Assembly (NCBI GenBank): GCA_033239525.1
Contig: BSYO01000036.1
Location: 6,780,126-6,844,125 of the forward strand
Direction: 5' to 3'
Source: Nepenthes gracilis
Lineage: Eukaryota > Streptophyta > Magnoliopsida > Caryophyllales > Nepenthaceae
DNA: 64,000 nucleotides
Position numbers and translations under genes: made by a program. Shown one piece after another: positions 4,329 to 60,707 of the stretch. The notes under the pieces were generated by a model that was not told the origin of the DNA, did not search any database, and saw nothing but the letters and a program-made list of their open reading frames with translations. Position 1 is the stretch's first letter. The number at the start of each line of letters is the position of its first letter.

Positions 4329-5590
4329 ATTTTAACTTGGAACTATACAATTACCTTGATGCAATTTTTATTCCAAACTATCTAATACCTATATGATACT
4401 TATCATGAACGACATTCTATAAATACTCAAGCTATAATGAGCCCTAGACAACTTCATAAACCTAATTATAAAACTTTTCACCAATTAATCTCACGAACAC
4501 TTTGATACTTACAAAGAATTGAAGTTTTTTTCTAACCTTAGATACTCCACCTTTATTAAACAACTTATAATTTTTGCTTTTTGACTGTTCAACCTGATTT
4601 TATTCCACCTTTCTTAAATTTTACATTCTAGATGTATTCTTTAATGTTCTAAACACTAACTTAGCAACTATAAATCACAAGGTACCCTAATGATTCACAT
4701 AGTAATAGTTCATGATAATAATCGGTCAACAATATTATAATTTATTACGTTTACAAGTACCATTACCACCATTTATCTACAAAGTAAATTCTAATATTTA
4801 ATTTCTATAAATTCCCTTATTTCCCATCAAGTCCATCCGGCTTGTTTACGACTCAGTTATACTCTTTATTCTATAGACCCAAGAGTATTTAATTAATTCA
4901 TTCTTCCACATATTTTCTTCTCTAAACAATATATTTTACATGTTTTAAAGGCCAAAATCTAGAAATTACAAATATACGATCTAATTCTATGATAATTAGC
5001 GATTTGGCATATTAATCAATGTTTTCATGATTTCATCATTTAATTAAAAAATATAATTCTAAAGTACCACGAGAGATAAGAAATTATGTAGTTTCCTGAA
5101 TGTTATGAATTAATATGCATGCTCCACAAATCACAACTTTATATCTTTAATAAATTTGAAATAACTTTATAATTATTGCTTATTTACACCACTGGCATCA
5201 CAATTCATCATTCTTTTGCATAACAATTTCTTTATTATGCTTGATCCTCATTGTTGAAATCTTTAAACAATTTTTATCCATCATAACATGTGAAGAAAGA
5301 GTAATTTTATATAATTTTCATGAATTATGAATGAATTTGAATCTTTAAGGAAGGAATTAATCTACATATAACAATTTTCACATACACATCAGAAGGTCTG
5401 CTCTCACAACCCAATAATATGATACAATCTAAAGGTGTCCTTGACGTAATATTAAACAACTTAATAATCCTCATAATTCTTAAGCCATTTGGTGTTATTA
5501 TTTCACAGCTCACATCATTGATCACAATATTGGTTTACTCAATTGATTTTTAACATGTCGTGCAACCATCTTTGAACTCATAATACAATT
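4329..5590. other. AT-rich stretch, no gene recognised
   Basis: No open frame of recognisable content and no clear repeat boundary was found. The only frame above 60 codons (5325-5525, minus strand) has no recognised motif. The sequence is the left flank of element C and ends with C's target duplication CAATT at 5586-5590. Confidence 0.5.
5586..5590. repeat. Left target site duplication of element C (CAATT)
   Basis: CAATT immediately precedes the TG start of the 5' LTR and is repeated exactly at 16822-16826 after the CA end of the 3' LTR. A 5-bp duplication is the normal footprint of a Gypsy integrase. Confidence 0.92.
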
Positions 5591-6786
5591 TGATGGGTAT
5601 ACTGAAAATGGGTTGGCCCAAAGTCAACGTTGGCCCAAAACGGCCTACTAGACGGTCAACTTGTGAACGGCTTAGTTAGAGAACAGGCCCAAACCATGAA
5701 AGGCTCAGGACGATCAATGCTGGCGTTGACCGTCCAGACCTCAACAGACGGCCAACACACACGCAGACGGTCAACTCAAATGTTGACCGGGTGTACTGTA
5801 GCAGTAGGCCAAACAGAGGTTATTTTATGGTTACGAACCTGGCCCACTTGAGCCCACGATCCATCAAACGACCAGTAACGGCTCTCCCAACATCTTCCAC
5901 GATCCCAGCTGGCTCCTAAAATGGACACTAACAAAATCAGCACCCTTCCCATGAGGAAGGCGCCAGATTTTCTTAATTTTTTGTCAACTGGGGCTCTCCA
6001 ACGGTAAAATACACGTAAGAAATGTGAGCAGTTTGGAAAGCCGCTGACCGCCGTGGAAGGAAACTATCTTGGTCCGTTTGGTAACTGGCATCAGCTCTAA
6101 AAGGCAGGCCAACAAAGAATAACGCAGGGGATCACACCTTCCAAAGGAGGGAGATCACCCTGTCAACCATAAGTAAACCCTAAAATTCTGATTCAAGAGA
6201 CCGATCTTTGCTTTTGACTTCTTGTTGACACATTCTGGAAAAAAAAAAGGCATTCTTACTTACACACGAGAGGCTCTTACAGGCAATTTCTGGCTTATAG
6301 AGATGATATCTCACTTACCTAAGCTCTTGGTTACGAACACAGAGAAAACTCTCACATCCATGAACGCTGACAAAGTACTGGACGGAGACCCATCGTCTCT
6401 TCCACTCTTCCAGACGTTCAGATCCCACCAGAGGCCTCCAACTTCCTGGAGACCTAATCAGGCCTTCGAGAGTCGTTCCCGGAAGCTTCCACGCTTTCGG
6501 AATATAGTTTCCCAACTCTCTGTGGGTAGGAATCGATCGCTCACGTCCTCGACAAGCTAGCACTCCAAATCCTCTTACTTTCTCTCGCTTTTCAGCATTA
6601 CCTTCCCTATCATAGGAGGCTTTACTGATTTGAGCGTCGGAGTATTTTGGTGGGACAACCTCCCGCCGACACACTGACCTCTTGTTCACTTTAGTAGTGT
6701 GCATGATTCGCACTCAGTGAACGAAGCCTGTTCAAACCATCAAGACGAATCCGAATCTGTTTGAAGTCGGATCCAAGTACGCATCA
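5591..6786 (+). repeat. 5' LTR of element C
   Basis: It begins TGATGGGTAT and ends GTACGCATCA, so TGATG and CATCA form short terminal inverted repeats. Its partner is at 15629-16821. The first 200 bases (U3) carry five WRKY-box cores TTGAC[C/T] at 5622-5627, 5654-5659, 5726-5731, 5769-5774 and 5783-5788, counting both strands. No strong TATA box is visible; CTCTAAAAGGC near 6094 is the best candidate. Confidence 0.93.
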
Positions 6787-6805
6787 TTGGCAACGTCTGC
6801 GGGAA
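6787..6805 (+). other. Primer binding site of element C
   Basis: TTGGCAACGTCTGCGGGAA starts right after the 5' LTR. It resembles the TTGGCGCCGTYTG-type primer site of Tat/Athila elements, usually assigned to an Asp tRNA, with the GCGCC core changed to GCAAC. The tRNA assignment is an inference. Confidence 0.6.
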
Positions 6806-6836
6806 ACGCTTACAAAAGCCAACCACAAATCTCACA

Positions 6837-8418
6837 ATGCTCTCTTTTTCATCGTCTGATTCTGCATTCGCAATGGTGAACATGAGAGCTCAAGCTAGCG
6901 ATCCCGCTAGAGACATCACCAACCCCGACCATGACCACGCTACTGGTGTCATGGTCAACGGGGCTACAAGCGAAATACCAACGCCCTATTTTCAATAGCT
7001 GATAGAGCAGATGCAGGCCATCACGCGTCTTCTCAAAATACTTTGCTCCCAGAACGTGCATCGACTACAGGCGGCTCCTCCGGTAGCCGTCCCTACACCG
7101 GCCACCAAAAAAGGTGGTCAGAGGAAAAAGAAGCCGGCCAAAAGGCCCAGGATATCCCGGAACAATCCAATCCCAGCATCCTGCGTTCCTGGCCAGAATA
7201 GGCCTGAAGAACATTTCAGGAGCACAACTCCACGAGAAAGTCTGGAGAGAAGAAATCCCTGATACTCTCGGGTTGAAGACAGAAACACAGTCCAGGAGTG
7301 AGCATCTAGGACTACCAGGTCTGTAGGAGGCAGCAGCCCACCAGGCTGCTGAACCCTCCAGAGACAAGACGAAGCTGAGGGCTTACCTCAACTCCAAAAA
7401 AGCAGTGAACGCCACTCGCGCAGATCCGCAAGTGGACAAAATCTGGAACCATGTGTTCCAAGATGAAAAGCACGCCATCGACTTGGACCAAACTCCTTTC
7501 ACAGCGAAGATCTTGAGCCGTCCACTGACCACAAAGTTCAAGATGCGTTCCCTTGACTCATACGATGGGAGCAGCGATCCAGCTGACCACCTGGATCACT
7601 TCTGCACCCATCTAAGTCTACAAGGGTTGAAAGACTCAACGATGTGCCGCTACTTTCTGCCCACGCTGAAGGGAGATGCCCGAATCTGGTTCCATCACCT
7701 CCCTTCAGGTACCATCAACAGCTTCCATGAACTCACGGACCTCTTCTTGGCTCAGTACGCCTCGAGACGGCGGGAAGAGAAGCAACCGTGGCATCTCTCC
7801 CACATCAAGCAGAAACCGGGAGAAAACCCACGATGATTCCTAGATCGTTTTGTGGCGGAGGCCATGCGGATTACCGGATCACGGAGGAGATGAAGCTGGG
7901 CAGTTTCATCTCCGCACTGACCTACGGGACTTCTTCAAGCACCTAGCCACAAGAATCCCCAAACCTTTTAGGAAGCGGAGTCCATTACGCAGGCATACGC
8001 TGCGGCAGAGGAGGCCAATGAGGCAAAACGCCCGGAGAGGGCAGATTAGTCCCGATTGTTCCCTAGAGAGGGAAAAAGGAAGTACGGCGACAGTGATCAC
8101 TCTCATCGAAAGCAACAGAGGTCTGGGCCAGCGGAGCGTAGAGACTACGAGTCCACTGGCTTCACGCCTCTGATAGACACACGATCTAACGTCCTCATGC
8201 AGATTCGCAGAGAAAAGTTCTTCAAATGGCCAAAACCACTAAAAAAGGACTCTAGAAACCAGTCGAAGTACTGTGACTTCTTCTGCTCTGCTGGGCATAC
8301 GACAGAGGACTGTAAGATGCTGCAGAGGGAGATCGAGGAGCTGATTCGCAGAGGGCACCTCACCAAATACGTCAGGAGCTCCGGACAGAACTCTGGAGCA
8401 GCTGACAGAGAGGGGTAG
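6837..8418 (+). pseudogene. gag: gag of element C (capsid and zinc knuckle), broken
   Basis: This encodes the structural protein that packages element RNA in cytoplasmic virus-like particles. The first ATG after the primer site is at 6837. Its frame has an in-frame stop near 6999 and then continues through a basic, Lys/Pro-rich stretch (7011-7262). A frameshift leads to the capsid region at 7405-7836, with the typical tract SLDSYDGSSDPADHLDHF and later WFHHLPSGTINSF, where capsid domains of the Retrotrans_gag family carry Trp and Phe. A TGA at 7834 and a shift near 7850-8050 interrupt the rest. The last part (8056-8418) has a Cys-His knuckle, CDFFCSAGHTTEDC, of the unusual CxxxCxxxxH form seen in Tat elements (normally CxFHxxxGHxTxxC). 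The protein cannot be made intact from this copy. Confidence 0.85.
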
Positions 8419-8556
8419 GAACGGTCTCCTCCCCGAAATCGGGTTGCAGCTGGGGTGATTAACATGGTCACCGCCTGACCTGTTAAAAACACATCTGACG
8501 GCGAGGAACAACAGACTGGGAGGAAGAAGCAGCGCACGGTGGACAACACCATTGGC

Positions 8557-8960
8557 TTCAATGATGACGACTTAGTTCATGTAATATCCCCCATGCTGAT
8601 CCCCTCGTTGTATCCACACTTGTTTCGGATGATAGCATCGACTACCAGCTAAAGCGAGTTTTTGTCGATAATGGAAGTTCAAAAGATTTTCTTTACTTGG
8701 ATGTGTTCTTCAAATTAGGCTTAAAAAAGAATCAACTGAAACCTGCCAAAGGCCCATTATACGGCCTCGACAACGAGCCCGTGCCCTTTCAAGGACTATC
8801 CAATTGGAGGTCACCTTGGGTACGTATTCGAAACAGCAAGTCGAACACTCACCTTCATGGTGGTCGACCTACCCTCAGTGTATAATGCCATACTGGGTAG
8901 ACCATGCTTGACAGCGTTCGGAGCGGTTACCTCGATACCACCTCAAAATGAAGTTTCCAA
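8557..8960 (+). pseudogene. Aspartic protease region of element C
   Basis: The retroviral-type aspartic protease cuts the Gag-Pol polyprotein. The active-site loop reads VFVDNGSSKDFLYLD with the catalytic Asp codon at 8667-8669. DNGSS, rather than DTG or DSG, is the usual form in the Tat lineage. Downstream comes the flap-side segment GLDNEPVPFQG (in frame with 8667), and then the family's 'YNAILGRP' block appears around 8880-8905 (TATAATGCCATACTGGGTAG) in another frame. So the site is present but the domain is split by a frameshift near 8790-8870. It lies between the gag knuckle and reverse transcriptase, as expected. Confidence 0.8.
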
Positions 8961-9109
8961 CACCCTATGGTGTCGGGGAGGTGCTGGGTGACCAAGTTAC
9001 TGGATGAACTTGTTACATGTCACAGGTTGCCCCTAGTGGCAGCACTAGAATAGCTGGGAAACTCGACCATCGAGACAAGACAACCCTTCAGCAAGCGCAG
9101 TCCGGTGAA

Positions 9110-10120
9110 GCCACGGATCTAATCCCATTGGACCCGGGAGGAGCCGGAGAAGTGTGTACAGATCGGTGGCTCATTCACCGGACCACTGCACGATGAACTG
9201 ATTGCGTTCCTACGAAGGAACGCTGACCTATTTGCATGGACTCCAGTAGACATGCCTAGAAACACAGCAAAGATAATGTTCCATGAGTTGGGACTTGACT
9301 TCGGCCGAAAACCCGTCAAGCAGAAGTGAAGGAACCACTGTTGAAAAGCTGATCGCCATTTGAGAGGAGGTGAAGAAGCTGCTGGATGCAGGCTTCATTA
9401 GAGAAGTTTATTACCCGAACTAGCTCTCTAATGTCATCTTAGTAAAGAAAAGCAACAAAAAATAGTAGATGTGCGTCGATTTTACCGACCTTAACAAAGC
9501 CTGTCCAAAGGACAGCTTTCCTTGCCCAGGATCGACCTGCTGGTTGATTCAACAGCCAGACATGAACTACAAAGCTTCATGGATGCCTATTCGATTTACA
9601 ACCAGATCCGAATGAGTCCGAGAGGACAAGAAGCACACCTCGTTCATGACCGATCAGGGCACCTACTGCTATAAAGTAATGCCTTTCGGACTTAAAAACG
9701 TTGGAGCGACCTACCAACAGCTGGTCAATAAAATATTTAAAAAATAAATTGAATGCAACATGGAGGTCTACGTCGACGATGTACTCGTCAAGAGCAAGGT
9801 CACCGGCGACCACATCCGTGACCTAGAAGAGTCATTCGAGGTGCTCCGTAAGCATCACATGAAATTGAATCCAGCTAAGTGTATCTTCGGAGTAGCCTCT
9901 AGCAAATTTCTCTGGGTTTCATCGTCTCCTAATGGGGGATCGAGGCGAACCCTAAGAAGATCAAGGCGCTCGCCGACATGGCTCCGCCAAGGAACATAAA
10001 AGGACGTCCAGCGACTGACTGGACGGCTGGCAGCACTGTCCGCTTCCTTGTGAAGTCCGGTGACAAGTACCAGCCATTCTTCAAAGCCATTAGAGGAACA
10101 AAATCCAACGGGTTTTAATG
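9110..10120 (+). pseudogene. pol: Reverse transcriptase of element C, frameshifted
   Basis: The RT copies element RNA into DNA. The region opens with the linker typical of Tat polymerases (a DVFAWTP-like stretch near 9225-9250). It then has the fingers motif CVDFTDLNKACPKDSFP near 9472-9525, the MDAYSIYNQIRM palm motif near 9580-9612 and the FGLKN/ATYQ block near 9687-9720. The catalytic YVDD is at 9769-9780, intact, within VYVDDVLVKS. The C-terminal thumb (KLNPAKCIFGV) follows to about 9910. Several frameshifts and stops interrupt it, for instance between 9530 and 9620 and after 9910. It could not be translated as one protein, though all catalytic motifs are still legible. Confidence 0.9.
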
Positions 10121-10595
10121 GACGGTGGAATGCCAAACCGCTTTCGATGAACTGAAACGGTATTTGGCCAGCTCGCCGTTGTTGGAGTCACCCAAGGGCG
10201 GAGAGGAATTATATCTTTACTTGGCAGTGTCGGAGGCGTCCCTCAGTTCTGTCCTCGTGCGCTAGGACTCTGATGCTCAGCGGCCAGTCTACTACGTGAG
10301 TAAAATGTTGACCGGCCTAGAGACTTGTTACTCACGCGTAGAAAAATTGGCCTTGGAGCTAACATTCTCCACACAGAAGTTAAGGCCCTACTTTCAAGCC
10401 CACCGGATAGTGGTCCTCACGGACCAACCGCTGAAAAACATACTCTAGAAATCCAACATTTCTTGACGGTTGGTAAAATGGGCTATCGAGTTGGGCGAGT
10501 TCGACATTGAATTCGAGCCCAGGCCTGCTGTAAAGGCACAGGCCTTGGCTAACTTCATTGTTGAGACTACAACCCCAGTTCTCAAAGAACGGAGT
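10121..10595 (+). pseudogene. First RNase H of element C (RT-linked)
   Basis: This is the RNase H that normally follows RT in Gypsy polymerases and degrades the RNA template. Readable blocks are AFDELKRYLASSPLL, LYLYLAVSEASLSSVLV (first catalytic region, with the usual Asp not clearly kept), RPVYYVSKMLTG, YSRVEKLALEL, LRPYFQAHRIVVLTDQPLKNIL and finally LGEFDIEFEPRPAVKAQALANF. A TAG near 10264 and another near 10447 interrupt the frame, and a shift separates 10325-10470 from 10470 on. In Tat elements this copy is often the degenerating one, complemented by the second RNase H downstream. Confidence 0.8.
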
Positions 10596-10597
10596 TC

Positions 10598-11040
10598 TGA
10601 AATGGATACTCCACGTGGACGGATCATCTATGGATACGAGCAGTGGGCGCTGGAGTGGTCTTACGACTCCCGATGGGTTTAAGGTGAAATACTCACTTCC
10701 CGGCAACTAATAACGTTGTCGAGTACAAAGCCCTATTAGCCGGACTGTGATTAGCCAAGGAATGCTCCACCAAGAGACTCGCAGTCTAGTGACTCCGAGA
10801 TGATCGTTAACTAGGTTAACAGAGGGTTTGAGGCAAACAATCTTCTCTTGGCCAAGTACTTGGCAAAGGCAAGGGAGGCCGCCCAGGGTTTTGACAAACT
10901 GACCTTGGTTCATGTTCCCAAACTGAAAATTGGAAGGCGGACCAGCTGACCAAAGCCGCTGCAGCCCAAAACCCGGAACAATATTCGAGGGACATGCGGG
11001 AGATCCTAGACGCTCCCAGTATTGAGAAGCGAGAAGCAAT
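10598..11040 (+). pseudogene. Second, archaeal-type RNase H (aRNH) of element C
   Basis: A second RNase H domain directly follows the first. It reads WILHVDGSSMDTSSG at 10603-10650, where the Asp of VDGS is the first catalytic residue. A frame change leads to TPDGFKVKYSLPATNNVVEYKALLAGL, in which the Glu of the VEYKAL block is the second acidic residue. Then come LAKECSTKRLAV and later DNLSSAVNRGFEANN-like remnants near 10800-10840. Stops occur near 10750 and 10790. Acquisition of this extra domain, related to archaeal and plant-type RNase HI, is an established feature of the Tat lineage and is one reason for the lineage call. Confidence 0.8.
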
Positions 11041-12291
11041 GTAGATTTCTAAAGCGGAAAACTGGATGATGCCTTTCCTAAACTATCTGGCGAACAGATC
11101 GTTGCCAGAAGATGTGGAGACGGCCAAACGGGTCAGGAAGAATGTCGGCTGATATGCTGTGGTTGACGGCGGTTATACCGCCAGGGCTACTCGACTCCAT
11201 ACCTCCGCTGCCTAACTCCCAAAGAGGCTAACTACGCTTTAAGCAAGGTCCACCTCGAGATATGTGGGTCGCACATTGGCGAAAAACTTGGCCTTCAAGA
11301 TCATGCGCTAGGGCTATTATTTGCCCTCGATGAAAAAAAGACGCGCTGGAGTTTGTGAAGAAATGTGATAGCTGCCAGCTTCACAGTAACCTTCACCGCC
11401 AGCCATCCGCAAATCCAAAGACCCTTCAAGCCCTTTGCCCTTCGCGCAATGGGGGCTTAACCTTCTCGGCCCTTTTCCTATTTCCAAGGGGCAAAGGAAA
11501 TTCATCATCGTGGGCATCGACTACTTCACCAAGTGGGTCAAAGCCATCCCACTGGCTAAGATTACAGAGCATAACGCCCTGGAGTTCCTCCGCCAAAGCA
11601 TCGTCTGTAGATTCGGCGTCCCCAAGGTCATTGTGACCGACAACGGGACCCAGTTCTCTGGGAAATGCTTCACCAAGTATTGCACCAGCCTTGGCATCAA
11701 GCTGGTCCACACTTCGGTGGCATACGCCCAAGCAAACAGACCGGTGAAGATGACAAACCGAACACTACTCCATGGGTTAAAAACTAAGCTGGAGGACGCA
11801 GAGGGCTCCTGGGCGGAGCTCCCTTCCGTTCTTTGGTCATATCGAACAAGCCCGAAGGAACCAACGCGCGAGACGCCCTTCAAACACTGTTACGGGACTG
11901 AGGCAATAATCCCGGTCGAAATCGAGCTTCCAAGTCTCAGGGTGGAGTCCTTCACCTACTACCTAACTCCCAAAAAATCAAGGAGCACCTAGACTTGCTA
12001 AAGGAAGCCTGCGACATTTCCAGAGTACGCACAACGGCCTACCAACATCAAATTGCCCAATACTACAACAAAAAAGTTAAAGCGCGACGATTCAATATAG
12101 GAGACCTGGTCCTACAAGGCATCGAGGCCACAGGCAAGTTGGCCAGTCGCAATAAGCTCTCCCCCAATTGGGAAGGGCCTTTCCTCATCTCCGCCATCCT
12201 GCAAAACAGAGCCTACAAACTCTGGAGCCAGGATGGAAAGCTGGTTCCACGAACGTGGAACGCCATCCACCTCAGACAATACTTCCAGTAA
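11041..12291 (+). pseudogene. Integrase of element C, with altered catalytic residues
   Basis: The integrase inserts the cDNA copy into nuclear DNA. The N-terminal zinc-binding part is readable as two His (codons at about 11251 and 11272) and the pair CDSC at 11364-11375. A frameshift near 11430 leads to the catalytic core in the frame of 11435-11992. The core keeps VTDNGTQFSG with the second Asp. The first catalytic Asp, expected in the W-G-x-D-L-x-G-P-F-P block, is Asn (AAC at 11459-11461). The Glu expected in the GQAEVTNR block is Lys (AAG at 11747-11749, in NRPVKMTNR). A TAG at 11990-11992 separates the C-terminal part (11995-12291), which reads to the natural stop at 12289-12291. Both catalytic losses fit G-to-A changes. 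Confidence 0.88.
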
Positions 12292-12460
12292 CAGACGTAG
12301 GTACGCATTTGTTTTATTGTTTGCACTCGCTTGCTTGTTTTTAATTCGCAAAAAATAAGTGTTTACCTAGCATACTTCCTATGTGCATGTGCATTGTTTT
12401 TTTATAGGTTACCCGACCTAGACTGCCCCTAAGTCGGGATGGTTTTCACCCTCTCGTTAA

Positions 12461-12740
12461 ACCCTAGTCATCTAGGCGGCCCATAAGCGGTCGAACTTGA
12501 ACCTCGGTCATCCGAGCGGCCCGTTAGCGGTTGTATTTAAACCCTGGTCATCCAGGTAGCCCACAAGCAGTCTACTATAAACCCTGGTCATCCAAGTGGC
12601 CTATAAGTGGTCTAATATAAACCCAGGTCATCCAAGTGGCCCATAAGCAATCTAATATGAACCTTGGTCATCCGAGTGGCCCATAAGCGGTCGTATTAAA
12701 CCTTGGTCATCCAAGTAGCCCGATAGCAATCAAAACCTTA
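12461..12740 (+). repeat. 40-bp tandem array after pol in element C
   Basis: Seven units begin at 12461, 12501, 12541, 12581, 12621, 12661 and 12700, so the period is 40 bp (last step 39). The consensus is roughly ACCCTGGTCATCCAAGTGGC, CCATAAGCGGTCTAATATAA. The array lies between the integrase stop and the 3' end of the antisense gene. It shows no coding pattern. Tandem repeats in this hypervariable 3' part are known in Tat elements and can seed satellites. Confidence 0.9.
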
Positions 12741-13107
12741 GGGGGCTTACGCAACCCACGCAATGACCTCCTCTATAAGGTGATAGCGTGATCAGTCAAC
12801 GACGGTCAAAGGGAGAAGCATCATTCTCCAACGTTGGCCGTCCAAGTTATCACTTGGACGACACCACCAGGCTGGTTAACACAACCACCTGCCAAGCCTA
12901 GGGACTTTGCTTCCCAGGCAGCCCAACAATGGCAGTCGCCAACCAAGTTGGCCGCCCAATGCAACAAAGCATGCAAACATAAGAGCAATAAAAGCTAATG
13001 GACATGGAATTGAAAGAATTTCCATTTTATTGCCTCCAAGTGTGTTGCAAATTACATTTTATGTACATGAATATAATGGAGGTCACAAAAATGTACAACA
13101 TAGGCGG

Positions 13108-14903
13108 CTATGGGGGCGGCAAAGGCCCCTGAATGTCATGAGGCTCCCCTATGAGGTTGTCTCTGTGTTGCGATGTTCTGTTGGACAAATTAATGAGCTC
13201 AACTGGGAAGCCAGGATCAATCAACCGCGCAATACACCTACTAACATTGATCCCCTCCAATAGCCGCATGTGCATCATGCCTTCGACTTTGTGGGGGCAG
13301 ATACGGAGACTCAGGACATTCTCCAAGGTTGCTTACCTTCCGGCAAGTCGACTGATGTGCGTTTTGGCTTGTTCAGCCTCTTCCTTCAAGCGGGCAACCT
13401 CGACCTTCAAGTTAGCGTTCTCCGTCTCCACTCCCGCCAAGATCGCCTCGAGGGCTGCAGTCTCCTCGCGGTGCTTGCCTCTTGAAGCAGCCAGCCTGAC
13501 ATCCATCCAGGCGATCTCCGCCTCCCTATCGGCAATCTCCTGGTCGCACTGCACCACCTCCTTAAAGATGGAAGAAACCAGCTTCCTCAACTACATAAGA
13601 GAAAAAAAACAAAGAACAAGTCATAAATCTAAGAAATGAGAAAGTACGAGGAAGCCATCACCAAGAATCATACCTCACAAAATCTCCTCGCGGGCCTCTC
13701 GTCCTAGTCTCCAAAACTAGCCCAGGTAGCGGTGGACCAGGAGCATCCTCTCTAGCCGAGCTAGTGCAGCTTCCTCCAAAATGCTCTCCAGCAGCTCATC
13801 AGTATCGTCCATGGCAACTACGGCTCCTCAACTGCAGCCTCCAGAGCTGCTGCTGGAGGATCAAGCTCCACCATTGGCTCAACAGAAAAAGTCTGCGCGA
13901 CTGGAGAGCTACCTGATGGCTCCCGCACCTCCACCACTGGCTCGCAAGCAGGTTCTATAAAGGATTTTGTCAACGCCGCACAAGGAACCGCTTGCGGCAT
14001 GGGTTGCTCCAGGATGACTCTCTCTCAAGAGCCACCGGCCGGTTCTGGTGGGTCTCTTCAAGGGCCACGGTACTGCCAGGACCGCTGCAGATCCCAACAA
14101 CGATGTAATCAACGTGGGATGACGACGATGAAGGTGTCTCCAGCACCTTCTCAGGCAACGGGCCGATAAACCCTTCATAAGTATGCCACATACGGATGAT
14201 CAAGCTTTTGGAATCCTCCGGCCGCATCATCCTTGCTGGCGGCGTAGGCTTTTGAACCGGGGAAGGCGGTCCCTAGTTCACCTTTCTAATCTTCGCCTTG
14301 GAAACCAGGAAGTCCCTCTTAAAGTCAGCGGGGTTCTCCTTGACCAAATCGGTCAACCACTCCAAGGCCGCCGTCTCCGCCACAGACGGTGTCCACGTAT
14401 ACGCCTCCGAAACCTGGCCCCAGTCCTTCGCAAGGGGCCAGGTTGCCCCCACACTCACAAAAAAGAAAGGCTTTTTCCAGTTCTTCAACAAGTCGTATAT
14501 GGCCGTGTTTATTTTCAGGCCAGAAAGGGGATGAGTGATATCCACTCTCCTCCCTGGTTTATTTTAAACAAGCTCCTCACCATTGACATTCTTGGCCTCT
14601 TATAGAATGTTTTCGAAGAAAAATACATAACGTACAGAGATACCGGACGGCGTTGGCGTGGAGTTGAGCTATTGGGACTCATAGGACTCGTAGGACAAGT
14701 AGAAAATCGTCCGGCAATGAAAGACGGAGGCCGCTCCTCAAGTGGGCCTCATACACTGTGATATGCCCTGCCGGTGGAGCAAAGGCTCTGTCATCCTTTC
14801 CAGTGACCCTCCAAGCAATTTCCTTTGGAATGTTAAACTCTACGTACAAAGCTTTAACGTCCACCTCTCTAAGCACAGAGGCGATGTCGGCAACAGAGGC
14901 CAT
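13108..14903 (-). pseudogene. Antisense gene of element C (plant 'putative gypsy type transposon' family), spliced, damaged
   Basis: A gene on the strand opposite to pol, between integrase and the 3' LTR. The start at 14903 sits in a strong plant context (CCATGGCC). The N-terminus, MASVADIASVL, runs to a frame break near 14679 and contains FNIPKEIAWRV and HITVYEAHLRSGLRLSLPDD. This pattern matches, from memory, the N-terminus of the plant family described as putative gypsy-type transposon proteins (Pfam Transposase_28). The second block (14545-14273) has NWKKPFFFVSVGATWP. A Pro/Glu/Val-rich linker follows (about 14230-13818). An 83-bp intron (13591-13673) joins FCE to LRKLVSSIFKEVVQ, and 13590-13333 is a heptad-rich coiled coil (EIADREAEIAW.. 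to LKEEAEQAK). A TAA at 13333-13335 ends that frame, overlapping a possible splice donor; the same frame reopens to 13108. Several frameshifts make this copy non-functional. The role of the family is unknown. Confidence 0.7.
13591..13673 (-). other. Predicted 83-bp intron in antisense gene of C
   Basis: On the minus strand the donor reads GAG|GTATGA and the acceptor a pyrimidine tract ending TTATGTAG|TTGAGG. The length is typical of short plant introns. Removing it fuses two stretches in the same frame (FCE + LRKLVSS), just ahead of the coiled coil. Confidence 0.65.
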
Positions 14904-15020
14904 GGATTAGTGGAAGGACTAGGGTTTCTGAGAAGTTGGGAATGAAGAAGACGAAGGCTAGGAGGCGTAGAAAGCTTTCGAAACGTGGAGGGAAACTTGA
15001 ACGGCAAGAACGCTTTAAAA
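14904..15020 (-). promoter_or_regulatory. Leader and candidate core promoter of antisense gene
   Basis: Reading the minus strand, a TATA-like TTTTAAAG at 15020-15013 lies about 110 bases before the ATG at 14903. The leader between is pyrimidine-rich and contains a telo-box-like AAACCCTAG near 14930-14920, a motif common in 5' regions of plant housekeeping genes. The assignment is by inspection only. Confidence 0.4.
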
Positions 15021-15194
15021 CCCCTCATAAAGGACGTCGTCAGTCCTGCCACGTGTTGCCTCCCTATTTGGCTCTTCAAAAGGCAAATCTCTGATGCATT
15101 AATGCCAGGATATCCGCCCAACCAAAAGGAGATGTGTGTCTTCTTCTGGCCTGCAAGCCGGCTGATGGCCATGCATCCATCAAGGCTGACAAAA

Positions 15195-15507
15195 AGTTCT
15201 CCAGAACTGACCAAGATGGTCAATAGTTCTGGTCAACATTATTCTCCGAAACTGGCTAAAGACGATCAACAGTTCTGGTCAATATTCTTCTCCGAAACTG
15301 AACAAGACGGTCAACAGTTGTGGTCAATATTCTTCTCCAGAACTGGCCAAAGACGGTCAACAGTTCTAGTCAATATTCTTCTCCGGAACTGACCAAGACA
15401 GTCAACAGTTCTGGTCAATATTCTTCTCCGGAATTGGCCAAAGACGGTCAACAGTTCTTGTCAATATTCTTCTCTAAAACTGACCAAGACGGTCAACAGT
15501 TTTGGTA
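15195..15507. repeat. 45/46-bp alternating tandem array (91-bp dimer) in element C
   Basis: Seven units start at 15205, 15250, 15296, 15341, 15387, 15432 and 15478. Steps alternate 45, 46, 45, 46, 45, 46, because odd units read AACTGACCAAG and even units AACTGGCCAAAG (each with point changes), giving a 91-bp higher-order unit. The shared remainder is close to GACGGTCAACAGTTCTGGTC followed by AATATTCTTCTCCGG. Each unit carries one or two GGTCAA/AGTCAA, i.e. WRKY-box cores on the minus strand, about eleven in all. The array lies upstream of the antisense gene and upstream of the polypurine tract. Confidence 0.9.
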
Positions 15508-15611
15508 AAACTTTTCTCTCTACCTTTCATAAAGTCCTCCGGGATCCTCGAACGACGAAGGGCAGAAAGAGGCATCTCATCATTAACATACAGGAGGCCA
15601 GAATTCTAGCC

Positions 15612-15628
15612 ACCGGCATGGGGGCTAG
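15612..15628 (+). other. Polypurine tract region of element C
   Basis: ACCGGCATGGGGGCTAG directly precedes the TG start of the 3' LTR. The GGGGGCTA core is where plus-strand cDNA synthesis would be primed. It is shorter and less pure than in the Tekay elements of this window. Confidence 0.6.
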
Positions 15629-16821
15629 TGATGGGTATACCAAAAATGGGTTGGTCCAAAGTCAACGTAGGCCCAAAACGGCCTGCTGGACGGTCAACCC
15701 GTGAACGGCCCAGTTGGAGAACAGGCCCAAACCTTGAAAGACCTAGGACGGTCAAGCGTTGACCGTCCAAACCTTAACAGACGGCCAACTCACACACAGA
15801 CGGTTAACTCAAATGTTGACCGGATGTACTGTAGTAGTAGGCCCAACAGATGTTATTTTATGGTTATGAACCTAGCCCACTTAAGCCCGTGATCCATCAG
15901 ACGGCCAGCAACGGCTTTCCCAGCATCTTCCACGATCCCAGCTGGCTCCTAAAATGGACACTGACAAAATCAGCGCCCTTCCCATGAGAAAGGTGCCAGA
16001 TTTCCCCAATTCCTTGCCAACTGGGGCTCTCCAATGGTAAAATACACGTAAGGAAGGTGAGCGTTTGGAAAAGCCGCTGACCGCCATGGAAGGAAACTAT
16101 CTTGGTCCATTTGGCAACTGGCATCAGCTCTGAAAGGTTGGCCAAAGAAGAATAACATATGGGATCACACCTTCCAAAGGAGGGAGATCACCCTGTCAAC
16201 CATAAGTAAACCCTAGAATTCTGATTCAAGGGACCGATCTTTACTTTCGGCTTCTTGTTGACACATTCTGGAAAAAAAAAGACATTCTTACTTACACACG
16301 AGAGGCTCTTACAGGACAATTTCGGCTTATAAAGATGATCTCCCACTTACCCAAGCTCTTGCTTATAAACACAGAGAAAACTCTCACATCCATGAACGCT
16401 GACAGAGTACTGGACGGAGACCCATCGTCTCTTCCACTCTTCCAGAGGTTCAAATCCCACCAGAGGCCTCCAACTTCCTGGAGACCTAATCAGGCCTTCC
16501 GAGAGTCGTTCCCGGAAGCTTCCATTCTTTCGGAACATAGTTTCTCTACTCTCTCTGTGAGTAGGAATCGATCGTTCACGTCCTCGACAAGGTAGCACTC
16601 CAAATCCTCTTAATTTCTCTCGCTTTTCAGCATTACCTTTTCTATCATAGGAGGCTTTACTGATTTGAGTGTCAGAGTATTTTTGTTGGACAACCTCCCG
16701 CCGACACACTAACCTCTTGTTCGCTTTAGTGGTATGCAGGATTCACACTTAGTGAACGAAGCCGATTCAAACCATCCAGACGAATCTGAATCTATTCGAA
16801 GTCGGATCTAGGTACTCATCA
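15629..16821 (+). repeat. 3' LTR of element C
   Basis: It starts TGATGGGTAT and ends GTACTCATCA, and corresponds over its full length to the 5' LTR at 5591-6786. The WRKY-box cores of U3 are largely kept. CAATT follows at 16822-16826. Confidence 0.93.
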
Positions 16822-16826
16822 CAATT
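16822..16826. repeat. Right target site duplication of element C (CAATT)
   Basis: Exact copy of 5586-5590 directly after the CA end of the 3' LTR. Confidence 0.92.
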
Positions 16827-20138: not shown

Positions 20139-22443
20139 TATGAGATCCCAATCCCGAAACACGATAATTATGGAATAACTAAGTTGATGATAAACATGAT
20201 TACGCTTAAGAATAAAGAAAAAATAAAAACCAAAGCAAAAAGGAGCGGAACTAGCCAAAGGGGGAACCGACGCTCGACATGCACTCGAGCACCGGGGAGG
20301 CACGCTCGAGGCAAGGCGAAAGCAAGCTGGCTACGATGAGGGTGTTTGAGCAGTACTCGAGCACTGATAGGGCATGAAATTGTGAACATGAACGCCTGAA
20401 GGGCGCTCAATGAGCACCCGAGGCAATGCCATGGCCGAGAGGGAGCACTCGAAGAGCGCTTAGGCACGCTCGAGTGCCCTGACGAGTATAAAAGTGCGTT
20501 GTGCGATTTCCTTCATCCATTTCAGCCATTCCAGCAAAGAAGAACAGGAGAGAGAAGGGAAATGAGAAGAAAGAGGGGAAAATCCACCCATCTGATCTGG
20601 TCTAGGTAAAAATAATGGTAGATCGAGTTAAGGCAAGTGTACTTCAGACGTTATTTACTATTTTTATACCGTTTTAATATATCAGATATCGTGTTTATGC
20701 ATTAAATCCACTTTTCTCCATGTTTACTATAAATAGAGCATATTTCTCCTAATTAATCAGATAGATTTCATATTTACTGATATATACTGCAATATTTACC
20801 TCCAATTTCATGAATAAATATATGTTTGGTGTTCGTTTATCATCCGGACTATTTGGCAAAACCCTAAGCACAAAAATGAAGGGATTTAACGGTTTTAATT
20901 CAAATTTTGATATATAAAAGTTAATCTGTAATGAGATATTGCTTGTGTTATAATTTATAATTGAAAATTTTATATGGAACTGCAATGAAGAGTTAACCAT
21001 GAGATTCCAACCTATTTTCTAAAGAACAATAGATTATAAGCTTTCTGATATTGTAAATTATGACCTAGGACTAATATACAGTCAGGTAATATTCTCTGAC
21101 ATGCCTTAGAATGTTATAGTGGTAATCGAGGATAACTCTATCCATAGAGTTATACGTGATCCGCCCTTCCTCAGGGTGACAACCTAGAGGGTAGTTACTG
21201 TTACCGGCCAGCATTACCGTTCTAGATCCTATGAGAAGGGATATATCCCACGAGAAGGAATAACCGATACTGGCCTTAGATTATATGAAGTGAATATAAT
21301 TTATCATCGATTATTCGTCCTCTCTACTAGTAGGGTATACTGGTTAGATCCTTTACTGATAGAAAAAAAATTTCTACAATTTATAGAATTGATATTGTTT
21401 TTCGATTTCTAAAGCACGCTTTACCGATTTATGATTATCAAAACATGATTATACCGATTCATGATTTTGGACACATGTTCAAATAGCATTATACCTTATT
21501 TCTATTTCTAAGAACGCTACTGCTCTTCTAATCTTACCGTAGTCCATGAATACTTCTGTTTTCGTGATGTTATCATAGTTTTCTATTCTAATAAATATAT
21601 ATTTTGTAAGAAAGTATAAATAATGATTACCGAGGCCTGTGAACGTGAAATTATACTTTTCTCATGTTTCTCGTATATGTTCTATGATCTTCTGTATTTA
21701 TATTCTTTTAATATTTTCATAATCGATGCCTTAATACAATTATACTTTACATGCTACTGTGTTTGTTACATATGCAGTTATATTCTGCATATTTTAGTAC
21801 ATTGTTGGGTTTTAACTCACTATTTTACTATTTTCTCTCCCTCCAAATAAGGACATAATAACGATACCGGCCGAGCAGGCTTAATGAGAACTAGCAAGGA
21901 AGATCTGGACCCTTGGAGTTTCTGAAGACTTAGGACTGTGATTATGTTATTGTAAATATCTGGATTATGAAGGAAGATTTTGTATAAAGGGTTATGATAT
22001 GCTTTATATTCTGTTGATCAGTATTTATACTTCTGTAGGATTCTGTTATGGATATAGTTGCTTCCGCTATATGTTTTCTGATTTTGTACAGGTCCTCGAT
22101 GGAATCTCTCATCTGAACTCTAGTATAGTGGATAGGGTTGTTAAATACAAGCCATGGATGGCATTTATGATCCTATGTATACGTATTGTAGAATGGGAAT
22201 TATGATATTTAGTTAGTTGCTTGCTTGTATTGATCTTGTGATTGTGTTGTGGTCATAAGTCTAAGGTTTGGATATCGAGTAGGCTTTGTACAGGTGTAAA
22301 TAAGTAGGTTGTATTTTTAATTTTTATTTAGTTACAAAGGAGACTTTGTCAAAATTTTTATATAAGTTAAATAATTTAAGTTTATGGATTATATTTTGTA
22401 TCTGTTTGACGAAGGTATGAGAATTAGGATCCAATCTGTCATA
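20139..22443 (+). repeat. 5' LTR of element B
   Basis: It starts TATGAGATCC (TG expected, TGTGAG in relatives) and ends CTGTCATA. It contains a GC-rich block at 20260-20485 with many CTCGAG and GAGCAC/GTGCTC motifs, followed by TATAAAAG at 20487-20494. Its partner is at 26451-28753. Confidence 0.88.
20487..20494 (+). promoter_or_regulatory. TATA box in 5' LTR of B
   Basis: TATAAAAG lies directly after the GC-rich block. In the right LTR the same site reads TGTAAAAG near 26792, so only the left copy keeps a canonical box. Confidence 0.5.
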
Positions 22444-26450: not shown

Positions 26451-28753
26451 TATGAGATCCCGATCCTAAAATACGGTAATTATTGAATAATTAAATTGAT
26501 GATAAATATGATTAGGCTTAAAAATAAGAGAAAAATGGGTACTAAAGTAAAAAGGAACGAAACCGGCCAAAGGGGGACCGGTGCTCGACGTGCTCTTGAG
26601 CACCGGGGAGGCATACCCAAGGCAAGGCGAGATCGAGCTGGCTACGACGAGGGCACTCGAGAGCGCTATCCGGGGTGTGAAATTGTGAACATGAATGCAT
26701 GAAGGGCGCTCAATGAGCACCCATGGCAGTGCTATGGCCTCGAGGGTCCGCTCGAAGAGCACTCGATACGCGCTCGAGCACCCCGATGGGTGTAAAAGCG
26801 CACTATACGATTTCCTTCCGCCATTTCGGCCATTCTAGCAAAGGGCAGCGGGAGAGGGGTGGGAAAGGAGAAGGAAGAGGGAAAAATCCACTGATCTGAT
26901 CCGATCTGGGTAAAAATAACAGTAGATCGAGTTAACGCAAGTGTACTTTGAACATTATTTACTATTTTTACAGCGTTTTAATATATCACATATCGTGGTT
27001 ATGCGTTAAATGCATGTTTCTGCATATTTACTATAAATAAAGCATATTTCTTCTGATTAATCAGATAGATTTCATATTTACTGGCATGTACTATAATATT
27101 TACCTTCGATTTCATGAATAAATATATGTTTGGTGTTCGTTTATTGTCCGGACTGTTTAGCGAAACCCTAAGCATGAAAATGAAGGGATTTAATAGTTTT
27201 AACCCAAATTTCTAATATGTAAAAGTTAATATATAACGAGATACTACTTGTGTTATGATTTATAATTGAAGATTTTATATGGAACTGCACTGAAGAGTTA
27301 ACCGTGAGATCCTAACCGATTTGCTGAAGAACGATAGATTGTAAGCTTTTTGATGTTGTAAATTAGGACTTAGGACTGATATATAGTCTGGTAAGATTAT
27401 CCGATATGCCTTAGAATGTTACAGTGGTAATCAAGGATAACTCTGTCCATGGAGTTATACGTGGCCCACCATTCCTCAAGTCGACAACCTAGAGGGTAGT
27501 TACTATTACCGGCCAGTATCCTCGTTCTAGATCCCATGAGAAGGGATAACCGTTACTAACCTTGGATTGTATGGAGTGAATACAATCTATCTTTGATTAT
27601 TCGCCCCCTCTGCTAGTAGGGTCTACTGGTTTGGTCCTATACTGATAGAAAAAAGAATTTTCTAAAATTTATAGAATTGATACTGTTTTTTGATTTCTGA
27701 AGCACGCTTTACCAACTTATGATTATCGAAACATGATTATACCGATTCACGATTTTGACACATATTTAAATAGCATTATGCCTTATTTCTATTTCCAAGA
27801 ACGCTACTGTTCTTCTGATCTTACTATAGTCCATGAATACTTCAGTTTTTCTGATATTATTGTAGTTTTCTATTCTAATGAATATATATTTTGTATGAAA
27901 ACATAAATAATGATTACCGAGGCCTGTTCACGTGGAATTATACTTTTCTCATACTTCTCGTATAAGTTCTATGATCTTCTACATTTATATTATGTTAATA
28001 TTTTCATAATCACTGCCTTAATGCAATTATGCTTTATATGCTACTGTATCTGTTATCTATGCAATTATGTTTTGTATGAGAATATTATATTCTGCATGTT
28101 TTAGTACCTTATTGGATTTTGGCTCACTAGTTTTACTATTTTTTCTCTCTAGATAAGGACATAACAATGATACCGGCTGAGCAAGCTTAGCGAGAGCTAG
28201 CAAGGAAGATCTGGAGCCTTGGAATTTCTAAAGACTTAAGATTGTGATTATGTTATTGTAAATATTTGGATCGTGAGAAAAGATTTTGTATAAAGGGTTA
28301 TGATATGCTTTATATTTTGTTAATCAATGTTTATACTTCCACAAGATTCCGTTATGGATATAGTTGCTTCCGCTATATGTTTTTTTGTTTTGTATAGATT
28401 CTAGATGGCATCTCTCATCTAAACTCTAATATAGTGAATAGAGTTGTTAAATAAAAGCCATAGATGGCATTTGTAATCCTGTGTACGCATGTTGTAGGAT
28501 GTGAATTATGATATTTGGTTAGTTGCATGCTTGTACTGGCCTTGTGATTGTATTGTGGTCATAAGTCTGAGGTTTGGATATCGAGTAGGCTTTGTACAGG
28601 TGTAAATAAGCAAGCTGTATTTTTAGTTTCTGTCTAATTACAGAGGAGAGTCTATCAAAATTTTTGTATAAGTTAAATGATTTAAATTTATGGGTTCTAT
28701 TTTGTATCTATTTGACGAAAGGTCCTATGAGAATTAGGATCCATTCCGTCACA
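26451..28753 (+). repeat. 3' LTR of element B
   Basis: It starts TATGAGATCC and ends CCGTCACA, collinear with the left LTR. The GC-rich block (26575-26790) is kept but the TATA box is changed to TGTAAAAG. Confidence 0.88.
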
Positions 28754-30509
28754 AGACTTGCGGAAGCACATACATCCATCAATCACAGTAGAGACAATAC
28801 TACAAGTATATAATCACTGATCATGTACATACATCAATATACAAAATAATTAATAATGATACAAAAAGCTCCCAGAGATACAAAAATCACAATATTAACT
28901 CCACAATTCTTTTTCTTCAAGATCTGTATCCTATCCAATTCCTAGGCTCTACTTGTGCTCATCAGGCATGAGGGCATGCTCATCTGGAGAAAAGAAAGTA
29001 GTACGGTTGAGCCAAATGCTCAACAAGTGTAATAAATAGTATATGCAAAATAAAATAGAGTTATTTAAGAGAAGAATAACGATGCATGAACATAAAGTAT
29101 GAATAAATATATTTTCAAAAATCATTTGTCTTTCATATTTTACTTATTCTTCCTTTAGGTTCCAAAATATGCAAAAAGTCTATTTAAACTTACAGACCAA
29201 GGCAAGTAGACCTTATTAACTAATGGTACAGTTGAACGAAGAAAGGAATGTTTATACTTCCACACATTCTAAGGTACAACCCATGCAGTTCAACACCCTA
29301 TGGTGAATGGTATACTTTTAACTCAATATATGAGGTCATATCACATATGCCACCATATCCCCCGTAGTCCTGAGATAGTCCTCGTGCTTCCACAGTAATA
29401 TCCTAAGGTATATCAGAGAATACTACCATCTGAAATGCAATCCTTGATCCAATATACATTTTCTTATTCTTAAGGAGATTTCATATTTGTTCATAAAATA
29501 TTGTTCTCGCTCCAAAGAACGGTTCATCCAACATAACACATTATGAAATTTTCTACTTATACTTCTCATAACATGTATAATTCTTAAGAGTTTACATTTT
29601 CTCATGAATTAGACTATATGCTTATTCGATAAAAAGCATGGAGAAAAATCAAAATTCTTACCACCGAGAGCCCAACACAACTTTAAAGCTTTCGGACAAT
29701 AATTTTTCTTCACAAATGTATATAACATAACTTTCGGAATATATATGAGATAGCATAGTTAATATACAAGCATATAAATAACCTGATTTATGTCCGATAA
29801 TGTTTTCAGTTTACTTAAAATAAGCAAATAATAATATATGTGAACAAATACCAAAAAATTAAGATACCGACGTCCACAAAGATAGGGTTCCCAATTTCTA
29901 AAGTTAAATCATGCAAAAACAACAAGGAAATCGGGTAATTTTGAAGAGGGGCATGGGTTAGGGTTTTTTGGGTGAGAAAACTGTACAAATCTCACAAGTT
30001 GGATGTGAAATTGAAGTATTTATATGCTAAGATCATGGGTAATACAAAATATAAATTTAATTGGGTATTAAAATGAAGATACCCCAAAATAATGGCATGA
30101 ACGCATAAGAAAACGAGAAAAAAGAGTATGAGTGTACTTGCCTCGACCAGATTTATAACTTCTCTAATTAGCTTGAGCTTGAAATCGGACTCAGTAACCT
30201 TAGATTCTTCCTTCTTTCTCTACTCCTTCGAGCTCTCTCTCTCTTCTATGTGGAAATCCCAAAAAATGACCGTTCAAAACCCTCACTGGGTATTTATATC
30301 GCGGGGCATGCTCAAGTATCGGCCGGCGCGCGGCAGGCGCACCATGTTCAGTTTCCAGCACCCAGTAAGCATGGCAAGTTCTGCTTCGGGTGCTCACGCT
30401 TTTTCCTATGTTCCCAAAACCAAATTTTTTCATATGAATTAAATTTAATTTTGATTATATTGACTTAATTATCTTCTAAATATTATGTTTTGAAATCCAG
30501 AATCTTACA
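28754..30509 (-). repeat. 3' LTR of A, inner piece
   Basis: It continues A's LTR after the insertion of B (AGACTTGCGGAAGCACATAC against AGACCTGCGAAAGCACATAT in the other LTR near 35394) and ends AATCTTACA, the reverse complement of the TGTAAGATT LTR start. A minus-strand TATAAATA lies near 30290-30297. Confidence 0.88.
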
Positions 30510-39520: not shown

Positions 39521-40297
39521 GGTTGGAGCTTGAGCACTTGAGGAACCATGCGAAAATGCTCGACAATGCACAATGAACAAATAATAATCACAGATAAAGG
39601 AACAAATAAGATTTTACTTGGAAAGCCCTATACTAAATAAGGAAAAAAACTAAGGGACATGCATTTGAAATATCCACTATACAACTATCGGTTATGCAAA
39701 TCCCGAATACAAAATAAGAGCTCCACACCTTATAGTAGATAGACCCGAGTAACAAGGAGCACAAGATAAATGAGAAGAAATTGAAGATTGAAACACAGTT
39801 TGAAACTCTACCAAGTGTTTGAACCTTCTTCTTCTCTCTCTTCTATATTTCTCACTAATAGCGCTCATTGGTCTATAAAATTTCAAGTGATATTTTCATT
39901 CTTTTAACCCTAAAATGCATTGGTGAGTTTTTATATTATTGGCCATGTTTGGGCATATCTAGACTCGACACGCATCACCGCCCGATTGCTCCTTGAACTC
40001 GGCACCCGATTGCTCTTGAACTTGGCATCGGGTCACCCTTGGACTTAGCATCACTACTCAATTTCCCTTGGACTTGGCATCCTACCACTCTTCAGTATGT
40101 CGCTCTTCGACATCACTGCTCAGTCACCCTTGGACTTGGCAACCGGTGCGTGAGCACAGATGCTCCTCGGCCACTGGCCGCATGCGCAAACACTGCAATT
40201 CTCTATTTCAATATAGAACCCATTTGTATTCAATCGAACCTCCAAACAGTTCAACAATCAATTATGAGCCCATATGGGAATGACCTATAACCCAACA
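39521..40297 (-). repeat. 3' LTR of element G
   Basis: On the minus strand it starts TGTTGGGTTATAGG at 40297 and ends CTCCAACC at 39521 (the 5' copy ends CTCCAACA). A purine-rich GTCATGAAGGAAAGTT lies just outside at 40313-40298, the polypurine tract. A minisatellite of CTTGGACTTGGCATC-type units lies at about 39963-40145. Confidence 0.9.
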
Positions 40298-53889: not shown

Positions 53890-54386
53890 TGGTGGAGTAT
53901 GGAGCTCCCTTGATAGAGCTCCCTTCCGGTGAGGAGTCCCCTCCAAATTCCTCTTTTGATGTTGAGCCACAGGGAGTGGCCGTTGTGATCATTGGGGAAA
54001 CGACAACTGACATGCCTGAGCCCTAAGGGATCACCGAGGTGGATGACCTAGTGCCTGCACCAGAGCCCACAGAGACTCGGAAGGTTGTCTGTGCACCTAC
54101 CAGGTCACCGCTTGAGCCGTTCATCCAGGTTCCTACTGTTGTTGAGGAAGCCGACACGTCTAAACATGTTGGCGATGCTTCCACAGCCAATGTGATTCAG
54201 GAGGGTGACACGGCGATGGAGGCATATCAGTCGGAGCCCCCTAGCATTCCTCCACCTTTGGACGTGTCAGATTTTCCTAGCCCTGTGGAGGAGGCTGCCG
54301 AGCGTCTTGAGCCCCTAGGTGTGCCTGCATCAGGACTCACCTTTGACCTGGCTAGCAGTGCGGGTGAGCCGTTCATTCGGGTATGA
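53890..54386 (+). pseudogene. Remnant of antisense gene in element D
   Basis: A plus-strand frame running head-on to D's pol: VEYGAPLIELPSGEESPPNS, a stop near 54025, then 54039-54386 open for 115 codons and rich in Pro, Glu, Val and Thr (EVDDLVPAPEPTETRK.. to ..LASSAGEPFIRV, stop). Composition and position match the linker part of the antisense gene in C (13818-14230). The 5' part and coiled coil are absent or unrecognisable. Independent occurrence in a second Tat element supports the antisense gene as a lineage feature. Confidence 0.5.
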
Positions 54387-54434
54387 TTTCTCTAAGTGCT
54401 GCACCCCTTCACTGTCCTAGGCGTTATCTAGAGG

Positions 54435-60554: not shown

Positions 60555-60707
60555 TGTGATGGACCGGATTTCTTAATAGGCTACTATTCACGTCTGTTAA
60601 TATCTAAATATAAATAGAGTAATAAAGCAAAACGTAAATAACCATGCAATATATATATTTTACAATAACACACACAAGTAAATAATCCATGCAATATATA
60701 TATTTTG

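What the first reader, a model, noticed from the sequence alone, without database searches (positions are those of the whole stretch)
13108..14903. Antisense gene inside a Tat retrotransposon, with gene-like anatomy
Element C carries, head-on to pol, a minus-strand gene with a strong start context (CCATGGCC at 14903), N-terminal blocks of the plant 'putative gypsy type transposon' family, an acidic/Pro linker and a C-terminal coiled coil. Seen directly: the frames, the start and the heptad pattern. Known: antisense ORFs occur in Tat elements, with unknown function. Inferred: this is a dedicated second transcription unit, not noise. Its conserved protein signature despite decay implies past selection.
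Basis: partly seen in the sequence, partly recalled or inferred. Interest (0 to 1): 0.75.

Follow-up and report, generated by a model that had tools for sequence, protein, structure and literature searches.

The report
Antisense accessory gene in plant retrotransposon
A worn-out plant jumping element carries, on the strand opposite its main genes, the remains of a real second gene that probably had its own promoter and an intron; antisense genes of this kind are already known from this class of element, so the find is mostly a well-described new example.

Summary
The minus-strand gene at 14903-13108 lies between pol and the 3' LTR of a full-length, Retand-type gypsy element (LTRs 5591-6786 and 15629-16821, flanking CAATT). 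It is decayed: 3 in-frame stops and at least 5 frame changes. Thirteen annotated Nepenthes gracilis proteins match it. The tail of one, P0005, is the antisense of integrase, so that relative also lies antisense to a pol gene. The 3 stops in homologous frames compare with 2.2 expected since insertion and about 16 at average frame density, so the gene was probably nearly open at insertion.

The Transposase_28 label is weak: one of 13 relatives, E=0.035, below cut-off. dN/dS could not be computed because no relative DNA was reachable.

The kind is known: a 2025 survey reports antisense TRP28 ORFs in 97% of Retand clusters, and maize Grande gene23 is reported to have its own promoter and a nuclear product. 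Verdict: new member of a known kind, with a candidate intron not mentioned in the two papers I searched for it. Function is inferred.

The parts
5591..6786 (+). 5' LTR (TGATGG...CATCA)
   Evidence: 90.1% identical to the 3' LTR; flanked by CAATT at 5586-5590
7327..7833 (+). gag piece
   Evidence: Pfam Retrotrans_gag E=3.5e-8
9748..9996 (+). reverse transcriptase piece
   Evidence: Pfam RVT_1 E=1.9e-7
10119..10445 (+). RNase H pieces (10119-10262 and 10266-10445)
   Evidence: Pfam RT_RNaseH_2 E=2.8e-8 and RT_RNaseH E=1.2e-9
11390..11989 (+). integrase core piece
   Evidence: Pfam rve E=6.7e-12
12457..12721 (.). tandem array next to pol, 40-bp unit, 6.7 copies
   Evidence: Tandem Repeats Finder
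13026..13031 (-). AATAAA downstream of the antisense stop
   Evidence: motif scan
13108..13590 (-). exon 2 of the antisense gene, coiled coil at about 13470-13345; one in-frame stop within
   Evidence: tblastn of P0005 to 13587-13234; heptad test
13591..13673 (-). 83-nt intron-like segment, GT...AG on minus
   Evidence: splice-site scores and base composition, controls, protein relatives P0005 and P0006 without an insertion here
13674..14903 (-). exon 1 of the antisense gene, decayed
   Evidence: tblastn of 13 relatives
14610..14753 (-). block corresponding to the weak Transposase_28 match of relative P0009 (its residues 51-98)
14920..14927 (-). telobox-like AAACCCTA, 24 nt before the ATG
   Evidence: motif scan
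15014..15019 (-). TTTAAA, 116 nt before the ATG; no TATAWA in the 300 nt searched
   Evidence: motif scan
15050..15055 (-). G-box CACGTG within ACACGTGGC, 152 nt before the ATG
   Evidence: motif scan
15197..15506 (-). tandem array next to the 3' LTR, 46-bp unit, 6.8 copies, holding 11 TTGAC[CT] sites all on minus
15629..16821 (+). 3' LTR
   Evidence: followed by CAATT at 16822-16826

Best explanation
This is the antisense accessory gene of a Retand-type Ty3/gypsy retrotransposon, in a copy that inserted a few million years ago and has since decayed. In intact relatives it is most likely an independent minus-strand transcription unit: a promoter between the 3' LTR and the gene, beside a tandem array of W-box-like sites, starts an mRNA that crosses exon 1, loses an 83-nt intron and ends beyond exon 2. 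The intron could persist because the element copies itself through its sense RNA, where the segment reads CT...AC and is not spliced (inference). The protein has an N-terminal domain that weakly resembles Transposase_28, an acidic/Pro linker and a coiled coil for dimers. Its most likely role is a nuclear, dimeric, DNA-contacting regulator of the element's own transcription or silencing (inferred, about 40%). Shown: homology, gene layout, heptad pattern, splice-site quality, motif array, few stops. Not shown: transcription, splicing, DNA binding, function. The confidence given is for gene-level reading and role taken together; for the gene-level reading alone I would say 0.85.
For: 13 N. gracilis relatives, all placed on the minus strand of this region. 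P0005 joined to antisense integrase, 76% identity over 100 residues. 3 stops in 497 homologous codons against 2.2 expected since insertion and about 16 at average frame density. Intron-like pair: 1 in the interval on minus, 0 on plus, 0 on either strand of gag-pol, 2 of 500 shuffles. 11 minus-strand W-box-like sites against shuffle mean 1.17, maximum 5 of 200 shuffles. Coiled coil 1 of 300 shuffles. Published: Grande gene23 transcribed in antisense from its own promoter, nuclear product (PMC7264820); TRP28 predicted to bind DNA (PMC11963269).
Against: No RNA, no relative DNA and no dN/dS. Frame changes are at least 5 against 2.5 expected, so the copy may not have been fully intact at insertion. 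PF04195 below cut-off in the one relative that matches, none in the other 12. Structure models too poor to read. Splice matrices were recalled and their thresholds set from the observed site; one pair of equal quality also occurs on minus in the other 47 kb scanned. The W-box sites come from one repeated unit and are not independent. No TATAWA in the 300 nt upstream.
Confidence: 0.6

Rival explanations
1. The antisense RNA, not the protein, is what matters: convergent transcription makes double-stranded RNA with the genomic RNA and tunes or silences the element.
For: Antisense gene and pol converge; PMC7264820 discusses this possibility and says both could be true at once.
Against: Protein similarity of relatives, the heptad pattern and the few stops point to a coding function; an RNA role alone would not keep a reading frame.
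Confidence: 0.15
2. The protein helps the reverse-transcribed DNA reach or enter the nucleus or integrate, rather than regulating transcription.
For: Nuclear product of Grande gene23 and the discussion of pre-integration-complex transport in PMC7264820.
Against: Nothing in this sequence separates it from a regulator; no nuclear-localisation test was made here.
Confidence: 0.15
3. The gene is a chance antisense frame, and the N. gracilis proteins are artefacts of gene prediction in repeats.
For: Several N. gracilis models skip segments (P0003, P0006, P0007), and P0005 runs into the antisense of integrase, as artefacts do.
Against: Similarity in consistent order with identities of about 35-85% per block, the splice pair and its controls, the heptads, and published lineage-wide occurrence.
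Confidence: 0.04

Closest known systems
Antisense TRP28 ORFs of Retand-lineage elements (Vicient 2025, PMC11963269)
   Same: Antisense ORF between pol and 3' LTR; tandem arrays next to pol and next to the 3' LTR; pol-3'LTR region of 3.3 kb within the reported 2,933-6,566 bp
   Different: Here decayed; Transposase_28 only below the Pfam cut-off; candidate intron, which that paper does not mention ('intron' 0 occurrences); 'Nepenthes' does not occur in its main text
Grande gene23 (maize; described in PMC7264820, the original Gomez-Orte 2013 not seen)
   Same: [quoted passage not shown] own promoter reported upstream of the gene, nuclear product reported
   Different: No expression or localisation data here; sequence relation not tested
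HBZ of HTLV-1 (named in PMC11963269; otherwise recalled)
   Same: Antisense gene near the 3' end of a retroelement; product with a coiled coil; nuclear (reported for HBZ)
   Different: No basic region is seen before the zipper-like stretch, so not a bZIP; a different kind of retroelement; an analogy, not a relation
VANC anti-silencing proteins of VANDAL transposons (abstracts of PMC5735166 and PMC10398659)
   Same: Element-encoded extra protein in a plant transposon that also carries tandem arrays
   Different: VANDALs are Arabidopsis elements not compared by sequence here; binding of the arrays by this protein is only a hypothesis

Membership tests
Retand lineage (Tat clade, Ty3/gypsy) | gag then RT, RNase H, integrase on the sense strand | tested here: met
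   Pfam pieces in that order
Retand lineage (Tat clade, Ty3/gypsy) | long pol-3'LTR region (2,933-6,566 bp in PMC11963269) | tested here: met
   12292-15628, 3,337 bp
Retand lineage (Tat clade, Ty3/gypsy) | antisense ORF between pol and 3' LTR | tested here: met
Retand lineage (Tat clade, Ty3/gypsy) | LTR length 315-1,194 bp and internal region 7,380-12,869 bp in the surveyed clusters | tested here: inconclusive
   internal 8,842 bp lies inside; LTRs are 1,196 and 1,193 bp, the first 2 bp above the range
Retand lineage (Tat clade, Ty3/gypsy) | additional RNase H between RH and INT (PMC6317226) | tested here: inconclusive
   no RNase H match in the broken pieces 10467-11041
Retand lineage (Tat clade, Ty3/gypsy) | position in an RT tree | not tested
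   no reference RT sequences were fetched
Transposase_28 (PF04195) protein | score above the Pfam cut-off | tested here: not met
   window pieces none; 1 of 13 relatives at 14.8 bits against 26.2; so not filed as a member
Transposase_28 (PF04195) protein | conserved G21, P25, L34, P46, N47, F55 (PMC11963269) | tested here: inconclusive
   by eye: relative P0004 has G, P, L and N in that spacing but A at P46 and L at F55; the window copy also has S at P25
Antisense accessory ORF (aORF-3R) | antisense, between pol and 3' LTR | tested here: met
Antisense accessory ORF (aORF-3R) | present in many copies of the family | tested here: met
   13 N. gracilis proteins; antisense position to integrase seen for 1 of 13, P0005
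Antisense accessory ORF (aORF-3R) | transcribed from its own promoter, nuclear product (as in Grande) | not testable with these tools
   no RNA or cell data; only promoter-like motifs

The most novel reading that the evidence does not exclude
The antisense gene is a spliced, stress-wired anti-silencing or self-recognition factor. Its dimeric product binds the element-specific tandem arrays that flank its own gene (12457-12721 and 15197-15506), the upstream array doubling as a WRKY-driven enhancer, so that protein and arrays co-evolve as VANC proteins and their targets are reported to do, but in an LTR retrotransposon. It would explain why Retand elements keep the antisense gene and often carry fast-changing arrays.
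Probability: 0.1. Interest if true: 0.75.

Novelty: new member of a known kind. Interest (0 to 1): 0.35.

Why it matters
The antisense accessory genes of Retand elements have no known function. A minus-strand intron would give a clean, cheap test of whether they are real mRNAs: minus-strand spliced reads cannot come from the element's genomic RNA. The layout also suggests a concrete, testable hypothesis, that the protein acts on the arrays flanking its gene.

Tried and rejected
Transposase_28 by Pfam on nine stop-free pieces and on the single-stop read-through: no match. Fold of the N-terminal domain: two AlphaFold runs with 13 and 12 sequences gave mean pLDDT 40.0 and 42.1; too poor, so no fold search was made. 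Solved structures: one match, a designed coiled coil, E=0.086. NCBIfam, five proteins: only weak matches in the coiled-coil stretches of P0005 and P0007. Viral contigs: 11 stretches matched a pattern, none a relative. A bZIP reading of exon 2 (E=1.9e-4, below cut-off) was rejected because only profile positions 19-62 of 64 match and no basic region is seen by eye. A second intron at 13336 (the best donor score) was rejected because P0005 stays homologous across it. A 30-residue segment skipped in P0006 and P0007, and inside a longer skip in P0003, was taken as a gene-model effect because P0004, P0005, P0008, P0009, P0010 and P0011 keep it. The 10 stops printed came from one piece read in a wrong frame; one search replaced them. 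A second Retand-like remnant at 54.0-57.6 kb has no match to the antisense family.

The splice matrices and the names W-box, G-box, ABRE and telobox were recalled, not taken from a call. The substitution rates behind the age of 3.5-7.5 million years were assumed.

Full report
What is there. The element spans 5591-16821 (11.2 kb). Its LTRs, 5591-6786 and 15629-16821, are 90.1% identical; aligned end to end they differ at 115 of 1190 sites with 4 small indels, K2P 0.105, or 3.5-7.5 million years at assumed rates. CAATT stands on both sides. Pieces of gag, RT, RNase H and integrase follow in gypsy order on the plus strand; the last pol frame ends at 12291. Two tandem arrays flank the antisense gene: 40-bp units at 12457-12721 and 46-bp units at 15197-15506. 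I call the element Retand-type from this layout and from PMC11963269 and PMC6317226; no RT tree was made, and the additional RNase H was not detected in the broken pieces.

The antisense gene. On the minus strand an ATG at 14903 in CCATGGCC opens a frame that, with interruptions, runs to a stop at 13108. Protein searches found 2, 5 and 13 proteins, the last set including the others; all 13 are named Nepenthes gracilis. No other species appeared at the thresholds used (0.01, 0.01 and 1), but searches scored only the candidates sharing most words, so absence elsewhere is not shown. That the window itself is from Nepenthes is an inference. tblastn places all 13 on the minus strand within 14903-13234, apart from P0011's upstream extension and P0005's tail in integrase. 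Closest is P0009, 85% and 82% identical over two blocks.

Layout in a relative. P0005 (563 aa) covers the gene and then, by its gene model, continues into 100 residues 76% identical to the antisense of this element's integrase, window 11731-11432. Whatever that last exon is, it indicates that in N. gracilis too the gene lies antisense to integrase and near it. This is one relative of 13; the others give no context.

Decay. In 497 codons of homologous frames (six pieces; the stretches between the pieces were not counted) there are 3 stops. About 2.2 are expected since insertion from LTR divergence, and about 16 at the average stop density of the interval's six frames (densities). Frame changes are 4 among those pieces and at least 5 when the block at 13771-13703 is added, against 2.5 expected. 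So the gene was probably open, or nearly, when this copy inserted; the excess of frame changes speaks against a perfectly intact start. Because gene models favour open frames, the openness of the relatives is weaker evidence. Among relatives the region 46-105 (P0004 numbering) is on average 65% identical and the region 201-324 47% (55 and 28 pairs).

Candidate intron. Between 13674 and 13590 lies an 83-nt segment, GTATGA...TTATGTAG on the minus strand, 67% A+T (1.6% of element-interior windows reach that; the two exons are 46.8% and 45.5%). It has the second-best donor of 106 and the best acceptor of 154 in 13000-15000. With thresholds set just under both scores, the antisense interval holds exactly one such pair on minus and none on plus, gag-pol none on either strand, the 47 kb after the element one on minus and none on plus; 2 of 500 mononucleotide shuffles hold one. 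The first 5.6 kb and the LTRs were not scanned. P0005 and P0006 read across this point without an insertion, and P0007 leaves the alignment at the same codon. The matrices were recalled approximations, and whether the relatives carry the intron in their DNA is unknown. A minus-strand intron could persist in a retrotransposon because the sense genomic RNA does not splice it (inference). The two papers on antisense ORFs in which I searched for 'intron' hold none, and PMC7264820 asks for a look at spliced antisense transcripts. Gomez-Orte 2013 and Kejnovsky 2006 were not seen, so priority is not claimed.

Control signals. The 725 bp between the antisense ATG and the 3' LTR hold 11 W-box-like sites, all on minus, against a shuffle mean of 1.17 and maximum of 5 in 200 shuffles; the LTRs hold 6 and 5 (shuffle means 1.7), the internal region to the end of pol 6 (shuffle mean 7.0), the antisense gene 2 (2.2), and the 47 kb after the element 62 (55 in 20 shuffles). 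The sites come from one repeated unit (spacings of 13, 32-33 and 45-46 nt) and are not independent. A G-box, TTTAAA and a telobox lie at -152, -116 and -24; no TATAWA or CCAAT lies in the 300 nt searched; AATAAA follows the stop at 13031. In P0011, annotated upstream of the start, the residues EATRG recur where this window reads GAGGCAACACGTGGC, a weak hint that the G-box is conserved. CACGTG occurs 6 times in the window, so one occurrence alone means little.

Protein. The N-terminal domain resembles PF04195 only weakly: P0009, E=0.035; 12 of 13 relatives give no match. By eye four of the six conserved TRP28 positions of PMC11963269 are kept in P0004, three in the window copy. It is therefore called Transposase_28-like and not filed as a member. 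The coiled coil is supported by shuffles. Structure prediction failed.

Reading. [quoted passage not shown] PMC6317226 (passages) finds Transposase_28 in 23% of Retand elements. PMC7264820 (parts 1-2 of 3, and a word search) reports own-promoter antisense transcription and a nuclear product for Grande gene23. PMC10606437 (passages) lists PF04195 as the commonest domain in blackgrass circular DNAs. The window's gene is a new, probably Nepenthes, member of that kind. I commit to a nuclear, dimeric regulator of the element's own expression as the most likely role, at about 40%; the gene-level reading is much surer than the role. The boldest reading left open is a VANC-like factor acting on the flanking arrays (abstracts of PMC5735166 and PMC10398659).

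Noticed in passing
15197-15506 and both LTRs: W-box-like TTGAC[CT] sites are dense in the array (11, all on minus) and above the shuffle mean in both LTRs (6 and 5 against 1.7), which would fit shared WRKY control of the sense and antisense units.
   Followed up: partly
54027-57655: A second Retand-like remnant in minus orientation: DNA at 56293-55025 aligns to this element's 8578-9848 at 65%; a plus-strand acidic/Pro-rich open frame at 54027-54383 is in antisense to it, without a match to the antisense family.
   Followed up: partly
20467-22132 / 26771-28438; 28753-30094 / 35392-36722; 39640-39842 / 45877-46079: Three further pairs of direct repeats 6.2-6.6 kb apart, 79-92% identical, probably LTR pairs of other elements.
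   Followed up: no
60706-61205: Two 203-nt copies 297 nt apart and 97% identical, closer to each other than the other repeat pairs listed.
   Followed up: no
11432-11731 (-): The N. gracilis gene model P0005 joins the antisense gene to an exon antisense to integrase; either an artefact or a sign that antisense transcripts run into pol.
   Followed up: no
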